A stretch of 43,799 nt of DNA from Acidobacteriota bacterium. Lineage in GTDB: Bacteria > Acidobacteriota > Blastocatellia > Chloracidobacteriales > JADJPF01. The translations under genes and the position numbers were made by a program. The stretch is taken from assembly GCA_016213785.1 (NCBI GenBank), contig JACQZQ010000117.1:1-43799 (forward strand), written 5' to 3'. The notes beneath the pieces were generated by a model, which saw only the letters and a program-made list of their open reading frames with translations, was not told where the DNA came from and did not search any database. Positions 34,955 through 41,512 of the stretch are shown piece by piece; the stretch's first letter is position 1; each line of letters starts with the position of its first letter.

Positions 34955-37783
34955 ATGAAAAACATTTGTTTTATTACTATTTTACTTAGCCTTTTAGTTA
35001 GTTTTAGCAACATCAGTGCTAAAACCCTTGATATAAATAGCCAAGAAAGTAAAAAAACTAGTTCTAATAAAGACTCTCAAAATGAACTAAAAAATGAACT
35101 AAAAACTAAGCTAGATAGAGTCATAGAAGCCTATAGACAAATTATAGTTCTTTTTGATGATGATAGCTCTTTAGACAGTCAAAAACGCAATCAAAATAGA
35201 AATGTAGCTCAAATAATTTATTATGAAAAACAAGAACTTCTTGATGAACTTACAAAAACCCTTACTAGTGAGATAAAAAATGGTGGACATAAAGGCCCAA
35301 AATATGTTCATAAATTATCTGATGAGTTTATTACTTATATAAATAGTACAAACTTACACGATGCTGATCGCTTAGCATTTCTTGACCTTGCAGACGAGCT
35401 ATTAAGTGCTATAGAAACAGTTCCTAATAAATATGCTAAGAGACATCCCTTATATGATTCTTTAGAAAAGCTTAATAAAGAGTTAAAATCCATTCAAGAT
35501 ATTTATAGAGAAGAACTTAAACGTATTTTTTCTCAATTTGGGATGCGTAGCCAAGAAGTTAAGCGAGAAAAATGGCAAGACTATGTTTCTTTTCTAAAAA
35601 ATACAATGAATCGTGAGCAAATCCTTAAACAATATGCTCAAGAAGATATTAAATCTGATGAAACTCTTTTTCGTGGAGGCTTGCACGATACAAAGAATGA
35701 AATTTATGGTTATGATTTACCACCTAAGACTATTCTATTAACTTTTGATGATGGGCCTCACCCAAAATATACTCCTCAAATTTTAGAGACTCTAAAAAAA
35801 TATAATGCTAAAGCCTTTTTCTTTCATATAGGAAAAAACTTAGGGACTGTTGGAGAAAAAAACGCTGTTAAACTTGCTAACACCGCAGATATATCAAAGA
35901 AACTTTTAGCCTCAGGTCATTTGTTAGCTAATCATAGCTATTCACACCCTGTTTTAACTAAGCTTTCAAGCGATAAAAGAGAACAAGAAGTGGCTAAAAC
36001 TAATAGTCTTTTAGAAGAAATTACTGGGAAAAAAATTACTTTTTTCCGCCCTCCATATGGAGCTAAAAATGCTGATTTAATAAAAGAAATAGAAGCTAAA
36101 GGAATGCAAACAATGATGTGGAATATAGATTCTGTTGATTGGGGTGATCCTATTCCTGAATCTATTGTCCAAAGAGTCTTAAAAGAGCTTAATGAAAGCC
36201 AAAAAGGTATTTTGTTAATGCATGATATTCATAAACAATCAGCAACGGCACTACCTACAATTTTAGAAGAACTAGCTAAGCAGGATTATACATTTCTATT
36301 TCTTAAAGATGGAAAACTAGCGCCTTATACTCTAGCTAGAACAGGCGAAACCAACCCAACATCCACAGAAAATATAGACTCAGCTAAACCTGTGTTTTAT
36401 CGTCAAAATTGGGCTGTAGTAATTGGTATTAATGATTATAAAAATTGGCCTAAATTGCGCCATTGTCTAAATGATGCAAATGGTGTTGAAGAAATACTTA
36501 CAAGTAAATTTAATTTTAAGAAAGGTAATATTATCAAGCTCTTAAATAGTGAAGCTACAAAAGACCGTATTATTAAAGCTCTAGATGAATTAACTAACAC
36601 AAATAAAATTAGCAAAGATGATAGAGTGTTTTTCTTTTTTGCAGGACATGGAGCAACTAGAAAACTCCCCTCAGGTAAAGACATAGGCTATATAATCCCT
36701 GTTGATTCAGAAGTAGAAGCTTCTCAAGCCAAAGCTATTAGCATGACGCAACTTCAAGAATTTTGTGAATTAATTCCTGCAAAACATTTATATTTTGTAA
36801 TTGATTCTTGTTATAGTGGTTTAGCTTTATCTAGGTCAGGTGGGCTATCACCAAATACTCAAAATTACTTAGAGCAAGTAACAAAACGCCCTGCTAGACA
36901 AATTCTAACAGCAGGAGGAGCAGATCAGCCTGTAGCCGATAATGGGCCAGAAGGCCATTCAATCTTTACTTGGGCATTTTTGCAAGGACTACAAGGAATA
37001 GCAGATATTGATGGAAATGGAGTAATAACCGCATCAGAGCTTGGAGCCTATATAAGCCCTGTAGTTTCATCACTTTCTAAACAAACTCCTGTATTTGGGA
37101 ATCTCTTGGGAAGCGAAGGCGGCGAATTTGTTTTTGAACTTCAAAGCGAATCTCTTACAGAAGTTAGCAAACAACTTGACGAAGAAGCTATTAAGCTTAG
37201 CCAAGAGCTTGATAAAATCGAAAAAGAAATCGCCCTAAAACGCGAGCGTAATATTAAGTTAAGACAACAGCTTGAAGAAAAACGCTCTAAGTTAAATGGA
37301 GATTCAGCACCAGATACTCGTGGTAGCCGTTCTACAACTCTTGCTAAATCAGGCGCTAATGCTAATACTAGCTCTAATTCTACACCTACATCTACACCTA
37401 AAACTCAATCAAATAAACAACTTGCACAAAGTCATCAAACTCTAGGACTAAAATATTATAGAGAAAAAAATTATGAGTTAGCCATTAAAGAACTTCAAGA
37501 GGCTGTAAATTATGACTCTAAAAACGCAACTATAGCAAATAACTTAGGCTATACCTACTATAAAAGTGGTAATTATCAAGAGGCTCTTAAATGGCTTCAA
37601 AAAGCTATGCAACTTGACCCACAAAGGATGCTAGCTTACTTAAATATCGCTGATGCTTATTTTAAGTTAGGTATGAATAAAGAGGCTAAACAAAACTATG
37701 AAAAAGCCTTAGAGCTTAATCCTTCAACATCTATAGGCGACTATATAAAGAAACAGTTAGAATTAATAACTCAATCAAAATAA
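34955..37783 (+). CDS. Secreted fusion: NodB polysaccharide deacetylase - caspase-like peptidase (C14) - TPR
   Basis: The 942-residue protein has a signal peptide (1-22) and a helical region (about 30-240). A NodB-type deacetylase (about 258-450) follows with TFDDGPH (D265/D266), NHSYSHP (H327/H331), RPPYG (365-369), a VDWGDP segment and LMHDIH. Next is a caspase/metacaspase-like domain (about 485-730) with WAVVIGINDY, the catalytic His in AGHG (H565) and Cys in DSCYSG (C619). The rest is a coiled coil (about 745-790), a Ser/Thr/Asn-rich linker and TPRs (about 825-935). Both catalytic sets are intact. NodB enzymes deacetylate peptidoglycan or chitin-like glycans; C14 peptidases cleave after basic residues. 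Having both in one secreted chain is unusual. It is divergent from a lysozyme gene. Confidence 0.9.
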   Translation: MKNICFITILLSLLVSFSNISAKTLDINSQESKKTSSNKDSQNELKNELKTKLDRVIEAYRQIIVLFDDDSSLDSQKRNQNRNVAQIIYYEKQELLDELTKTLTSEIKNGGHKGPKYVHKLSDEFITYINSTNLHDADRLAFLDLADELLSAIETVPNKYAKRHPLYDSLEKLNKELKSIQDIYREELKRIFSQFGMRSQEVKREKWQDYVSFLKNTMNREQILKQYAQEDIKSDETLFRGGLHDTKNEIYGYDLPPKTILLTFDDGPHPKYTPQILETLKKYNAKAFFFHIGKNLGTVGEKNAVKLANTADISKKLLASGHLLANHSYSHPVLTKLSSDKREQEVAKTNSLLEEITGKKITFFRPPYGAKNADLIKEIEAKGMQTMMWNIDSVDWGDPIPESIVQRVLKELNESQKGILLMHDIHKQSATALPTILEELAKQDYTFLFLKDGKLAPYTLARTGETNPTSTENIDSAKPVFYRQNWAVVIGINDYKNWPKLRHCLNDANGVEEILTSKFNFKKGNIIKLLNSEATKDRIIKALDELTNTNKISKDDRVFFFFAGHGATRKLPSGKDIGYIIPVDSEVEASQAKAISMTQLQEFCELIPAKHLYFVIDSCYSGLALSRSGGLSPNTQNYLEQVTKRPARQILTAGGADQPVADNGPEGHSIFTWAFLQGLQGIADIDGNGVITASELGAYISPVVSSLSKQTPVFGNLLGSEGGEFVFELQSESLTEVSKQLDEEAIKLSQELDKIEKEIALKRERNIKLRQQLEEKRSKLNGDSAPDTRGSRSTTLAKSGANANTSSNSTPTSTPKTQSNKQLAQSHQTLGLKYYREKNYELAIKELQEAVNYDSKNATIANNLGYTYYKSGNYQEALKWLQKAMQLDPQRMLAYLNIADAYFKLGMNKEAKQNYEKALELNPSTSIGDYIKKQLELITQSK

Positions 37784-37841: not shown

Positions 37842-39974
37842 CTATTGACCTCTATTAACAGAAAGCCCTGGGGTTTTTAACACATAAACCCCGCCTGAAA
37901 AAGACCCTACATAAAGAAGGTCTGGATCAAAATTATCAAAAGCAACTGCACCTATTCTATTTGAGGCAACTTGACGTTCTAGACGAGTAAAACTCTCTCC
38001 TAGATCAGTAGAAATATATAAACCACCATTACGATAATCACCTACTACAATAACATTAGGGTTAGTATTACTAAAACGTACCGCTAATGGCTCACCGTAA
38101 GGGATTCCACCACCACGTCTTAACCAAGTTTTGCCGCCATCTCTAGTTAAAAAACAAGTAGTATCACTAGTAACCATTAAAACATTACCATCATGAGGGC
38201 TAACATTAATTGCTTGTATAACTGGGGTTTGGTTAAGGATTGTAACAAGTTCCCAAGTCTTACCATCATCAAAAGAGCGATAAAGCCCTTGGTTAGTGCC
38301 TGCATAAATAATATGTTGTTTTTGATCAGTAGCAACAGAAAGTATTTTTCCAATATAGTTAGCGATTTTTAACTTTTCAATTTGCCCTGTTTCGCTGATT
38401 TGGTAAAGCCCTGACCAAGCAGCAACTAAATGACCACGATTATTAAAGTTTGGAGCAACAGAAACTACTCGTTCAGTTACAGTTGCATTTGGTAGCTTTT
38501 TAGTTTTACTAGAAACCTTAGCTACAACTTTTTTAGTAGTAAAAGTCTTTTTACCTGTAGCAGGCACATTTGGAGTAGGTTTAGGACTAGGAGTAATTGC
38601 TAGAGCAGGAAGTTTACTAGTAATTTTTGACCAAGATTCTCCTCGATCAACAGAAACATAAAGTCCTAAATTAGTACCTGCGTAAAGGAGTTTTTCATTC
38701 CAAGGAGATTGATAAATAGTATAAATATCTTCACTTGCTAGACCTCTAGAAGAAAGTTGCCAATTCTTTCCTCCATCAGTGCTTAAGTAAAGTCCTCCGT
38801 CAAAACCATTAAATAAGGCTGCTGCATAAACTCGACCTTGAATACTACGATCGGCAAGTAGCACAGAAATTTGCCTATTAATAAAGCCTTTATTACTCGC
38901 TATAAAACTATCCCCACCATTATCACTAACTAGAACCCCCCCAAATCTTATGCCAACATAAATCTTATTTGGGTTAGATGGATGTATTGCAACAGCATTA
39001 ACTACTGTGCGAAGCGAAGTTATTAGCCTCCAACTTTGTCCACCATTTATACTTTTCCATAGCCCCTCTGTAGTACCTGAGTAAATCACTTGATTATTAG
39101 TAGGATCTGGGTAAATTGTGTGTGTACGGCGGCTAGTAAAAGGAATTCCTTGGAATTTTGTCCAAGTAGCGGCACGGTCTGAACTAGTATAAATCCCGCT
39201 ACAAGCACTAGCAAAAAGCAAATTGCTATCTTGAGAATCTATAAGAATAGTAAAAATATCTGAGTCATCAATAAATTGTTGTTTCTTTTCTGTTGGATGG
39301 CCTTTAATACAAACCCAGTCTTTACCACCATTATCAGTCCGCCAAGGTAAATGCTCTGTTCCTAAGTAAATAATATTAGGGTCTTTATCAATAGCGATTG
39401 AATGAAAACGTCTTAAATCAGTATGATCTTTAGGTGTAATTCTCTCCCAAGTAGTACCAGCATCTAGACTACGAAAAGCTCCATCAATTGCAGCAGCAAT
39501 AATAAAATTAGAGTCTGTAGGGGCTAAAGCTAAGGCGCGTACAGAATGCCCTTTCATCCCTGTTAACTCTTGCCAACTATCGCCACCATCAGTAGTTTTA
39601 TAAATAGCCCCGTCTTCATCATTAGCTAAAGACCACAATGGAACATAAATCGTTTTACTATTTTTTTTATCAACTATAAGTCTATCTACTACATAACCTG
39701 GATGGTGAAAGGAAAGTAGCCTTACCCAAGTTTTAGTAGAATCTGTAGATCTGTAAATTTGTCCATCACCAGTCCCTAAGTAAAGCCTATTAGGATCACT
39801 AGGATCTATAGCTAAAGAACGGACATCACCACCTGTTGGCCCAACTTCTGACAAAGTAAAAGTTGTTGTTACATCAGGATCACTACTAGCAAGAGCTAGG
39901 TTACTTAAACTACTAAAACCCAAGAGTAGTAAAAAACACAAAATAATTCTAAACTTCATTATTTTTAACTCCAC
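37842..39974 (-). CDS. Secreted Asp-box (BNR/sortilin/YCF48-like) beta-propeller protein
   Basis: The 710-residue protein has a signal peptide (about 1-29) and roughly twelve Asp-box motifs of the form S-x-D-x-G-x-x-W (for example STDSTKTW, TTDGGDSW, STDGGKNW, SVDRGESW, SFDDGKTW, TRDGGKTW), spaced about 40-60 residues. This is typical of BNR/sortilin/VPS10-like propellers and GH74-type folds. A Pro/Lys/Thr-rich linker at about 460-500 splits it into two propeller parts. No GH74 catalytic Asp pair could be confirmed by eye, so I do not call it a glycosidase. Such proteins are abundant in Acidobacteriota and often of unknown ligand. The gene ends 58 bp from the convergent deacetylase-caspase gene. 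Confidence 0.88.
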   Translation of the reverse strand: MELKIMKFRIILCFLLLLGFSSLSNLALASSDPDVTTTFTLSEVGPTGGDVRSLAIDPSDPNRLYLGTGDGQIYRSTDSTKTWVRLLSFHHPGYVVDRLIVDKKNSKTIYVPLWSLANDEDGAIYKTTDGGDSWQELTGMKGHSVRALALAPTDSNFIIAAAIDGAFRSLDAGTTWERITPKDHTDLRRFHSIAIDKDPNIIYLGTEHLPWRTDNGGKDWVCIKGHPTEKKQQFIDDSDIFTILIDSQDSNLLFASACSGIYTSSDRAATWTKFQGIPFTSRRTHTIYPDPTNNQVIYSGTTEGLWKSINGGQSWRLITSLRTVVNAVAIHPSNPNKIYVGIRFGGVLVSDNGGDSFIASNKGFINRQISVLLADRSIQGRVYAAALFNGFDGGLYLSTDGGKNWQLSSRGLASEDIYTIYQSPWNEKLLYAGTNLGLYVSVDRGESWSKITSKLPALAITPSPKPTPNVPATGKKTFTTKKVVAKVSSKTKKLPNATVTERVVSVAPNFNNRGHLVAAWSGLYQISETGQIEKLKIANYIGKILSVATDQKQHIIYAGTNQGLYRSFDDGKTWELVTILNQTPVIQAINVSPHDGNVLMVTSDTTCFLTRDGGKTWLRRGGGIPYGEPLAVRFSNTNPNVIVVGDYRNGGLYISTDLGESFTRLERQVASNRIGAVAFDNFDPDLLYVGSFSGGVYVLKTPGLSVNRGQ

Positions 39975-39994
39975 GTAAATAAAAGATTTATTGA

Positions 39995-41512
39995 TTAAAA
40001 CGTAAAGACCTCAGAACGAACATCATTGTTAGAAATCAAAACAAGCTTATTACTATTAGCTTTTTTATTTAAGTTTAGCTGTTTACGCTTTCCTGTTATA
40101 GAAAGCTCTGTAGTATTAGCAATTTTTATAGGTAAAGTAGTAATTTTTCCATTTATTTCTACTTTAGTATCCTCATTAATATTAGTTGCATTAATTTTTA
40201 GCAGCTTAGCCTTTTTATCATACATAACACTAATAACTTTAGGGACAGAAACCCGATTAGACCAAAGAATTAAAGCCTTTGAAGAGCTACCACCTTTAAT
40301 TAATCCTTCAAAAACCACTTCATCATTATCAGACACTATTGAACCTAAAACGGCAGCATTAAAAGCTGCATCATCTGCAAAGACTCCACCAAGAGGGGTA
40401 GGATCTTTTTGCCCCACTATTTTTGATACTTTTCCATCAGAGGAATAGAAAAATAAACCATAGATGGTATTACTAGTCACAGCACGAAAAACAAAACTGC
40501 TTTTTTCTGTTAGTCTGCCATGAGAAGGGGTAAGAGCAAGGCTTAGAGTACGAAAAACACCTCCATCAGGCGAAGGATCGTCAATAGATATTAATTTAGT
40601 AATTTTATTATTTTCTGATGAGAACAAATAAAGGCTATCTTTACCTAAAACTTTGCCAATAAAAAGCACTTCACCTTTGCTATTAAGATAACGGCCAGAA
40701 GTGCTAACTTGCTCAAAAGGTGTTCCTTGTGGACTAAGATCACCTGAGGTGACAACTTTTTTTATTACTCCATTTGATGATAAATAAATGCCAGAAGATA
40801 GAGGTTTTTCCTCTAAGCTAGCCAAGAAAAGTACTTCGCCTTTTTCATTAATAGAAGGTATGGTGGCTTGAGTAAATTGAATTTTTCCTATGTTTGGAAT
40901 TTCATCACCGTTTGCCACTACTTTAGTTATTACTTTATCTTTATTAATAAGAAAAACTGTTGGTGTAATATCTGCTGTAACTACACTAGTTAGAAAAACT
41001 ATATCGCCTCTATTGTTTATACTAAATGAACTTGATAGAGGTAGGTCTGTACCAAAAACGCCTCCAATAGGTGTTTGACTATTAGCTAAAACAACAGGTC
41101 TTACTTGTTTTTGTGAGTAAAGAAACAATCCCCCATCTATAGGAAGATTAGAAACACTACCAGCAAATAAAATATCTCCATTATCATTAATTTTAGGAAA
41201 TATCATTCTAAAAACTTTAGCATCATTATCTAATCCAATAACAGGTGTGCTACGATCAATAATTACCTCTGTTTCCATCATACCAAAAATATTTCTAGCA
41301 ATAATAAGCCTAGGAGTAGATCTATCTGTAGCTAAAAAAGCTACTTCAGACTTATTATTAATACTAGGCTGACTAAGCGTAGCAATAGGTGTTCCATCAG
41401 GAGCATTGTCACCAATTTTAGTAAGTATGCGTAAGTTCTCACTTTGTGCAAAAGAATTAATTGTAAAAGTAAGGATTAAAATAAAAACTGATAGTAAAAC
41501 TCTTAAATTCAT
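39995..41512 (-). CDS. Secreted protein with about seven repeats of a GD.xPxGG.F...IN..G.V.F motif
   Basis: The 505-residue protein has a signal peptide (1-22, INSFAQS). The mature part is built of about seven repeats of 50-60 residues, each with a segment like GDNAPDGTP, DPSPDGGVF or DPTPLGGVF and then a strand such as PSINNKSEVAFLA, PKINDNGDILFAG or PSINEKGEVLFLA. The regular repeat suggests a seven-bladed beta-propeller. Similar repeats are annotated in databases only as domains of unknown function. A C-terminal basic beta segment (about 440-505) follows the propeller. GAGG supports the start. It lies 20 bp upstream of the Asp-box propeller gene on the same strand, so the two are probably co-transcribed. 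Confidence 0.8.
   Translation of the reverse strand: MNLRVLLSVFILILTFTINSFAQSENLRILTKIGDNAPDGTPIATLSQPSINNKSEVAFLATDRSTPRLIIARNIFGMMETEVIIDRSTPVIGLDNDAKVFRMIFPKINDNGDILFAGSVSNLPIDGGLFLYSQKQVRPVVLANSQTPIGGVFGTDLPLSSSFSINNRGDIVFLTSVVTADITPTVFLINKDKVITKVVANGDEIPNIGKIQFTQATIPSINEKGEVLFLASLEEKPLSSGIYLSSNGVIKKVVTSGDLSPQGTPFEQVSTSGRYLNSKGEVLFIGKVLGKDSLYLFSSENNKITKLISIDDPSPDGGVFRTLSLALTPSHGRLTEKSSFVFRAVTSNTIYGLFFYSSDGKVSKIVGQKDPTPLGGVFADDAAFNAAVLGSIVSDNDEVVFEGLIKGGSSSKALILWSNRVSVPKVISVMYDKKAKLLKINATNINEDTKVEINGKITTLPIKIANTTELSITGKRKQLNLNKKANSNKLVLISNNDVRSEVFTF

What the first reader, a model, noticed from the sequence alone, without database searches (positions are those of the whole stretch)
34955..37783. 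Secreted NodB deacetylase - caspase - TPR fusion divergent from a lysozyme
Seen: one chain has a signal peptide, a complete NodB site (D265/D266, H327/H331, RPPYG), a complete caspase His-Cys dyad (H565, C619), a coiled coil and TPRs. Known: NodB enzymes modify peptidoglycan or chitin-type glycans, and C14 peptidases are usually cytosolic or in signalling or death contexts. Inference: a self-processing or protein-cleaving wall-modifying enzyme, possibly cooperating with the divergent GH25 lysozyme in wall remodelling, predation or self-lysis. I know of no characterised protein with this order of domains.
Basis: partly seen in the sequence, partly recalled or inferred. Interest (0 to 1): 0.75.

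Follow-up and report, generated by a model that had tools for sequence, protein, structure and literature searches.

The report
Known exported deacetylase-caspase fusion, new relative
The gene is a real, intact protein that joins a cell-surface sugar-deacetylating enzyme to a caspase-like protease, but it is a new relative of a protein type described in 2012 (the "Xanthomonas-type metacaspase") rather than a new kind of protein.

Summary
Observation confirmed: window 34955-37783 (+) is one intact 942-aa frame with an export signal, a helical N-domain, a complete NodB/CE4 site, a complete C14 His-Cys dyad, a coiled coil and TPRs. The fusion is not an artefact: full-length relatives in Acidobacteriota and Gammaproteobacteria show the same order, with catalytic residues invariant. 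The claim that no such protein is known is wrong. Asplund-Samuelsson et al. 2012 (PMC3501461) named this architecture the Xanthomonas-type metacaspase and already found it in two acidobacteria. New here: every full-length relative whose start I could read carries a Sec signal, lipobox or N-terminal anchor, so the family looks extracytoplasmic. The S1-type aspartates predict Arg/Lys specificity, which sits badly with the caspase-3-like (DEVD) death role inferred in Xanthomonas. The N-domain is family-specific. One acidobacterial family carries caspase-less copies derived from the fusion. The GH25 lysozyme neighbour is conserved only in the same genus. Most likely mechanism (inferred): an envelope polysaccharide deacetylase whose deployment or turnover is set by an in-chain Arg/Lys protease, with TPRs docking a partner. 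Novelty: new member of a known kind; interest modest.

The parts
34955..37783 (+). Deacetylase-caspase-TPR fusion gene, 942 aa
   Evidence: single ORF; Pfam; full-length relatives
34955..35020 (+). Sec-type signal peptide, residues 1-22 (predicted by eye)
   Evidence: sequence; export signals seen in the other full-length members
35066..35638 (+). Family-specific all-helical N-domain, residues 38-228, with the KREKWQDY signature
   Evidence: no Pfam family above its cut-off; found only in front of this NodB domain; AlphaFold2 helical, pLDDT 77.5, pTM 0.77; no convincing PDB fold match
35714..36307 (+). NodB/CE4 deacetylase domain, residues 254-451; D265 D266 H327 H331 R365-PPYG D392 W396 H423
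   Evidence: Pfam; PDB SpPgdA 2c1g E 6.6e-39; catalytic residues invariant
36395..37141 (+). C14 caspase-like domain, residues 481-729; H565 (36647-36649), C619 (36809-36811), D507 and D617 S1-type aspartates
   Evidence: Pfam; PDB metacaspases 7qp0/8a53/4f6o; invariance
37004..37039 (+). EF-hand-like loop D684-I-D-G-N-G-V-I-T-A-S-E695
   Evidence: positions 684, 692, 695 invariant and 686/688 D/N in 20 sequences; weak match to calcium-binding proteins 3akb/3aka
37154..37294 (+). Long helix / predicted coiled coil, residues 734-780; not conserved in the family
   Evidence: model; no near-invariant column in 746-815
37412..37726 (+). TPR repeats, residues about 820-924
   Evidence: Pfam, helical model with high pLDDT
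34785..34954 (.). Shared intergenic region between the divergent GH25 and fusion genes; blocks conserved with L025
34032..34784 (-). Secreted GH25 (lysozyme-type) protein, divergent neighbour; same-genus association only
   Evidence: Pfam E 6.1e-21; neighbour in L025 at 86% identity, not found at the other loci

Best explanation
It is an acidobacterial (Blastocatellia) member of the exported 'Xanthomonas-type metacaspase' family. Shown: export signal by sequence, helical N-domain, intact CE4 site, intact C14 dyad, TPRs in one chain, and strong conservation of both active sites across phyla. Inferred: outside the cytoplasm the CE4 domain de-N-acetylates an envelope glycan, most likely peptidoglycan GlcNAc because SpPgdA is its nearest solved relative. 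The C14 domain cleaves after Arg/Lys, probably in its own chain or in a partner held by the TPRs. That cleavage would switch, release or turn over the deacetylase and so tune wall or surface-polymer modification. Identity as a family member is about 0.95 likely; 'exported bifunctional envelope enzyme' about 0.8; peptidoglycan rather than another envelope glycan about 0.5; the protease-controls-deacetylase coupling about 0.35. The confidence given here is for 'family member and exported bifunctional envelope enzyme', without the substrate and coupling steps.
For: Domain order and E-values. All catalytic residues of both enzymes invariant in 19-20 sequences, including R627/R645/R648 in the p20 linker and D617, D657, D662. 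NodB nearest PDB relatives are the peptidoglycan deacetylases SpPgdA and PdaC, and the best NCBIfam model is PgdA. C14 nearest PDB relatives are metacaspases; the alignment puts D507 and D617 on the conserved ND and DSC positions, which I equate with S1 residues Asp95 and Asp211 of TbMCA2 (PMC4357240). Export signal, lipobox or N-terminal anchor in every full-length member whose start is readable (for L085, MWQAFGLAKVLLVSFCLWSSSVGA). N-NodB-only copies nested within the fusions show that the fusion is ancestral there and the deacetylase half can persist alone. Named and described in the literature.
Against: No activity is shown for either domain in any Acidobacteriota member. The glycan substrate is inferred from a distant relative. 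Neighbourhoods do not converge on one pathway. One relative (L084) sits in an exopolysaccharide-type locus, which points to another substrate. The AlphaFold2 model of the full chain is poor in the C14 region, so no structural test of the S1 pocket was possible. Export signals were judged by eye and pattern, not with a trained predictor.
Confidence: 0.75

Rival explanations
1. Programmed-cell-death executioner: the caspase half kills the cell from within, as proposed for Xanthomonas, and the deacetylase half is incidental.
For: Published: caspase-deficient X. campestris pv. glycines mutants are reported not to undergo PCD, and the product of the fused gene cross-reacts with caspase and PARP antibodies (PMC3501461). 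Related caspase-3-like activity work: PMC4006831.
Against: All full-length members examined have export signals, and all ten members in the order of S. koreensis have lipoboxes, so the mature protease is predicted outside the cytoplasm. The S1-type residues are acidic (D507, D617), predicting Arg/Lys rather than the DEVD specificity assayed. The reported 55-kDa enzyme does not match the roughly 100-kDa product without processing. The NodB catalytic residues are kept as strictly as the C14 ones.
Confidence: 0.12
2. Exopolysaccharide or capsule modification: the CE4 domain acts on a secreted surface polymer, and the C14/TPR part controls the machinery that makes or anchors it.
For: In L084 the gene lies among genes that read as mannose-1-phosphate guanylyltransferase, a sulfatase-family membrane protein, UDP-sugar dehydrogenases and a Stealth-like glycosyltransferase, and overlaps a downstream BNR_2 gene (only the sulfatase and BNR_2 names come from a Pfam scan, the others from reading the sequences). 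Exported CE4 enzymes with TPR or partner domains act on exopolysaccharides in PgaB-like systems (general knowledge).
Against: Only one locus of this kind was seen. The window locus has no polysaccharide biosynthesis genes next door. The nearest solved relatives are peptidoglycan enzymes.
Confidence: 0.3
3. GH25-fusion wall-remodelling pair: a lysozyme and the deacetylase act together, the deacetylase altering glycan strands or the protease activating the lysozyme.
For: The divergent pair, with conserved intergenic blocks, is kept in both species of the genus although the genes upstream of GH25 differ.
Against: No GH25 next to the gene in the other Acidobacteriota and Gammaproteobacteria loci tested. 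The downstream BNR and DUF7453 genes are conserved in L025 as well, so the linkage may be plain synteny.
Confidence: 0.12
4. Artefact: two genes joined by assembly or a missing stop.
For: The closest relative's frame is broken once (L025).
Against: The break there lies inside C14, not at the NodB-C14 junction. Intact fusions occur independently in Acidobacteriota and Gammaproteobacteria.
Confidence: 0.01

Closest known systems
Xanthomonas-type metacaspase (PF01522 + metacaspase + TPR; Asplund-Samuelsson et al. 2012, PMC3501461; X. campestris pv. glycines GI 88792532)
   Same: Same domain order, intact His-Cys dyad, TPRs at the C-terminus; the paper already includes two acidobacteria (Solibacter, Koribacter). 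L027 (S. koreensis) has the mnmE/trmE neighbour the paper reports and is 37-39% identical to the window protein over nearly its full length.
   Different: Different gene neighbours (GH25, BNR, DUF7453 instead of trmE); Sec signal rather than the lipobox of the members in the order of S. koreensis; an extra coiled coil before the TPRs. The passages of the paper that I read do not discuss the export signal of this architecture or the helical N-domain as a family signature.
Streptococcus pneumoniae PgdA (PDB 2c1g), peptidoglycan GlcNAc deacetylase, CE4
   Same: Best solved match of the NodB domain (E 6.6e-39), all CE4 motifs, N-terminal extra region before the catalytic domain.
   Different: Far below the PgdA equivalog cut-off (140 vs 800 bits); no caspase or TPR part in PgdA; N-domain unrelated by sequence.
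Orthocaspases / metacaspases (MEROPS C14B), e.g. MaOC1 and the yeast, trypanosome and plant metacaspases (PDB 7qp0, 4f6o)
   Same: His-Cys dyad, D in DxC and ND in alpha-1 (S1-type aspartates), so predicted basic P1.
   Different: Exported and fused to a glycan deacetylase; an EF-hand-like loop follows the catalytic core.

Membership tests
Xanthomonas-type metacaspase (PMC3501461) | Polysaccharide deacetylase followed by metacaspase domain, with TPRs C-terminal | tested here: met
   Pfam scan; full-length alignment with S. koreensis
Xanthomonas-type metacaspase (PMC3501461) | Conserved Cys-His catalytic dyad | tested here: met
   H565, C619 invariant in 20 sequences
Xanthomonas-type metacaspase (PMC3501461) | One homologous family rather than a look-alike fusion | tested here: met
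   Full-length homology including the family-specific N-domain; C14 domains group together against other class C14s, though support for that branch is weak (39/85)
CE4 / NodB polysaccharide deacetylase | Motifs TFDDGP, HxxH, RxPYG, DxxxW and the final H | tested here: met
CE4 / NodB polysaccharide deacetylase | Metal-dependent de-N-acetylation of a glycan | not testable with these tools
   needs purified protein
Orthocaspase / metacaspase (C14B) | p20 His-Cys dyad with acidic S1 residues | tested here: met
   S1 residues as in PMC4357240
Orthocaspase / metacaspase (C14B) | Caspase-hemoglobinase fold | tested here: inconclusive
   AlphaFold2 model from a 5-row alignment is low-confidence in the C14 region; sequence match to solved metacaspases E 1.7e-7
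Orthocaspase / metacaspase (C14B) | Arg/Lys-specific proteolysis | not testable with these tools
   needs an assay
Peptidoglycan deacetylase PgdA (equivalog) | Score above the curated NCBIfam cut-off for PgdA | tested here: not met
   140.1 bits against a cut-off of 800; relatedness of the domain only
GH25 lysozyme (neighbour) | Score above the Pfam GH25 cut-off | tested here: met
   76 bits against a cut-off of 27

The most novel reading that the evidence does not exclude
A self-regulating envelope enzyme: a periplasmic or surface orthocaspase, possibly calcium-gated through its EF-hand-like loop, cuts its own chain at conserved arginines (R627/R645/R648) or in the NodB-C14 linker to switch or release the glycan deacetylase. 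The 'bacterial apoptosis' caspase of Xanthomonas would then really be a cell-envelope remodelling enzyme.
Probability: 0.25. Interest if true: 0.65.

Novelty: new member of a known kind. Interest (0 to 1): 0.33.

Why it matters
The architecture is known, but I found no work in the searched library that assigns it a biochemical activity on purified protein. The survey makes an old claim testable. The protein cited as the Xanthomonas 'programmed cell death caspase' belongs to a family whose members, where checked, look exported, have an Arg/Lys-type active site and keep a strictly conserved glycan deacetylase. That points to envelope remodelling rather than intracellular apoptosis. Caspase-less descendants in one acidobacterial family give natural controls for separating the two activities.

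Tried and rejected
Assembly artefact or frameshift at the NodB-C14 junction: rejected by intact relatives. Plasmid-borne relatives: no plasmid place covers 80% of the protein; those listed cover about 30% or less. Conserved neighbourhood: I saw no gene family next to the fusion shared across phyla. The N-NodB-only copies were checked for a nearby separate C14 gene (a split fusion): none in the fetched 15-kb regions. Full-chain AlphaFold2 model: too poor to use (pLDDT 59.8, pTM 0.31). N-domain fold search: no Foldseek match under E 0.2 and VIA Z below 8 for a helical bundle, so no fold assignment. Literature searches for orthocaspase + deacetylase and for caspase family protein + polysaccharide deacetylase + Xanthomonas found nothing.

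Full report
Observation. The window is a contig of a 6.4-Mb genome. Its closest relative, placed in the same genus, is a Blastocatellia (Acidobacteriota) MAG. The ORF 34955-37783 (+) is intact, 942 aa. Pfam finds a polysaccharide deacetylase (254-386), a C14 caspase domain (485-681) and TPRs, all well above their cut-offs. The divergent GH25 gene is real.

Reality of the fusion. A tblastn-confirmed pattern search of a species-level genome collection gave three further loci. L025 is the same genus and 77-82% identical. L026 is a contig with proteobacterial gene content in a MAG labelled Pedobacter. L027 is Stenotrophomonas koreensis. L026 and L027 match from about residue 47-60 to 936 at 37-40% identity in one frame. 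A profile of these found the family in 14 of 396 Acidobacteriota genomes: six with the full fusion, one broken or fragmentary, seven with caspase-less copies only. It found 10 of 151 genomes in the order of S. koreensis and 3 of 195 in the order of L026's genome. The family is real, sparse and spread over at least two phyla. The same-genus copy in L025 has one frame break from a 10-bp difference inside C14. With 3x coverage I cannot tell a sequencing error from a decayed gene.

Conservation. Across 19 full-length sequences plus the L025 C-terminal piece, all CE4 residues (D265, D266, H327, H331, R365, P367, Y368, G369, D392, W396, H423) and C14 residues (H565, C619, D617, R627, R645, R648, D657, D662) are invariant. 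C14 is the most conserved part (92 of 265 near-invariant columns), then NodB (48 of 206) and TPR (21 of 127). The linker 456-480 and the coiled-coil region 746-815 have no near-invariant column. Both enzymes therefore look strongly constrained wherever they are kept.

Export. Every full-length member whose start can be read has a Sec-type signal, a lipobox (all 10 in the order of S. koreensis, and L033) or an N-terminal hydrophobic anchor. These are sequence judgements, not output of a trained predictor. They argue that the protease works outside the cytoplasm.

N-domain. Residues 38-228 match no Pfam family above its cut-off. In 396 Acidobacteriota genomes the domain was found only in front of this NodB domain. 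AlphaFold2 gives a helical domain (pLDDT 77.5, pTM 0.77) with no convincing solved fold. It is a family signature of unknown role.

Enzyme parts. The NodB domain's closest solved relatives are peptidoglycan deacetylases, SpPgdA first (E 6.6e-39). The C14 domain's closest solved relatives are metacaspases. I equate D507 and D617 with S1 residues Asp95 and Asp211 of TbMCA2 (PMC4357240). This predicts cleavage after Arg/Lys. An EF-hand-like loop (D684-E695) is conserved in form; a calcium role is inference. Orthocaspases are reported to autoprocess without further activation when made in E. coli (PMC5756287).

Evolution. In the N-NodB tree the caspase-less copies of one acidobacterial family (f29) form a single clade nested inside the fusions. 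The fusion is thus ancestral there and the C14-TPR half was lost, perhaps after a tandem duplication still visible in G403, where the fusion and a short copy are adjacent. The C14 domains of the family group apart from other C14 domains of the class, but that branch is weakly supported.

Neighbourhood. GH25 sits beside the gene only in the same genus. There the divergent pair and intergenic blocks are kept while the genes upstream of GH25 differ. S. koreensis has mnmE/trmE, as reported for Xanthomonas, Xylella and Stenotrophomonas (gene named by reading the sequence). L084 has an exopolysaccharide-type locus. I saw no neighbour shared across phyla.

Known or new. Asplund-Samuelsson et al. 2012 (PMC3501461) describe exactly this order as the conserved 'Xanthomonas-type metacaspase', in Xanthomonas, Xylella, Stenotrophomonas and two acidobacteria, with intact dyads. 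They link it to reported caspase-dependent cell death in X. campestris pv. glycines and suggest auto-processing. The present gene is a new, deep-branching member.

Mechanism. Shown: anatomy, conservation, export signals by sequence, family membership. Inferred: deacetylation of an envelope glycan, Arg/Lys proteolysis, TPR docking. Speculative: that the protease controls the deacetylase by cutting the chain. The cell-death reading is disfavoured by export and by the predicted basic specificity, but it is not excluded.

Noticed in passing
L025:5560-5640 (G001:C363): The same-genus copy has one 10-bp difference that breaks the frame inside the caspase domain; both halves are otherwise 77-87% identical to the window protein. 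MAG coverage is only 3x.
   Followed up: partly
L035-L043, L058; G403:C1:907513-911397: Caspase-less N-domain plus NodB copies in one acidobacterial family, one of them adjacent to a full fusion; the tree makes them derived from the fusion.
   Followed up: yes
L084:2460-15818: The fusion lies in an exopolysaccharide-type locus and overlaps a downstream BNR_2 gene by a few bases.
   Followed up: partly
L046-L054, L027 N-termini: Members in the order of S. koreensis carry lipoboxes, so the 'cell-death caspase' type is predicted there to be a lipoprotein outside the cytoplasm.
   Followed up: partly
L026: Contig in a MAG named Pedobacter carries LpoB, CsgG-like and other proteobacterial genes at 59% GC; the organism label is probably wrong or the contig misbinned.
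   Followed up: no
window 37842-41512 (-): Sortilin/BNR propeller and DUF7453 genes downstream are also conserved in the sister species; function unknown.
   Followed up: no
G000:C30:39297-40058, C105:6516-7262, C114:36631-37401: Three further C14 proteins over the Pfam cut-off in the same genome; none carries this family's N-domain.
   Followed up: partly
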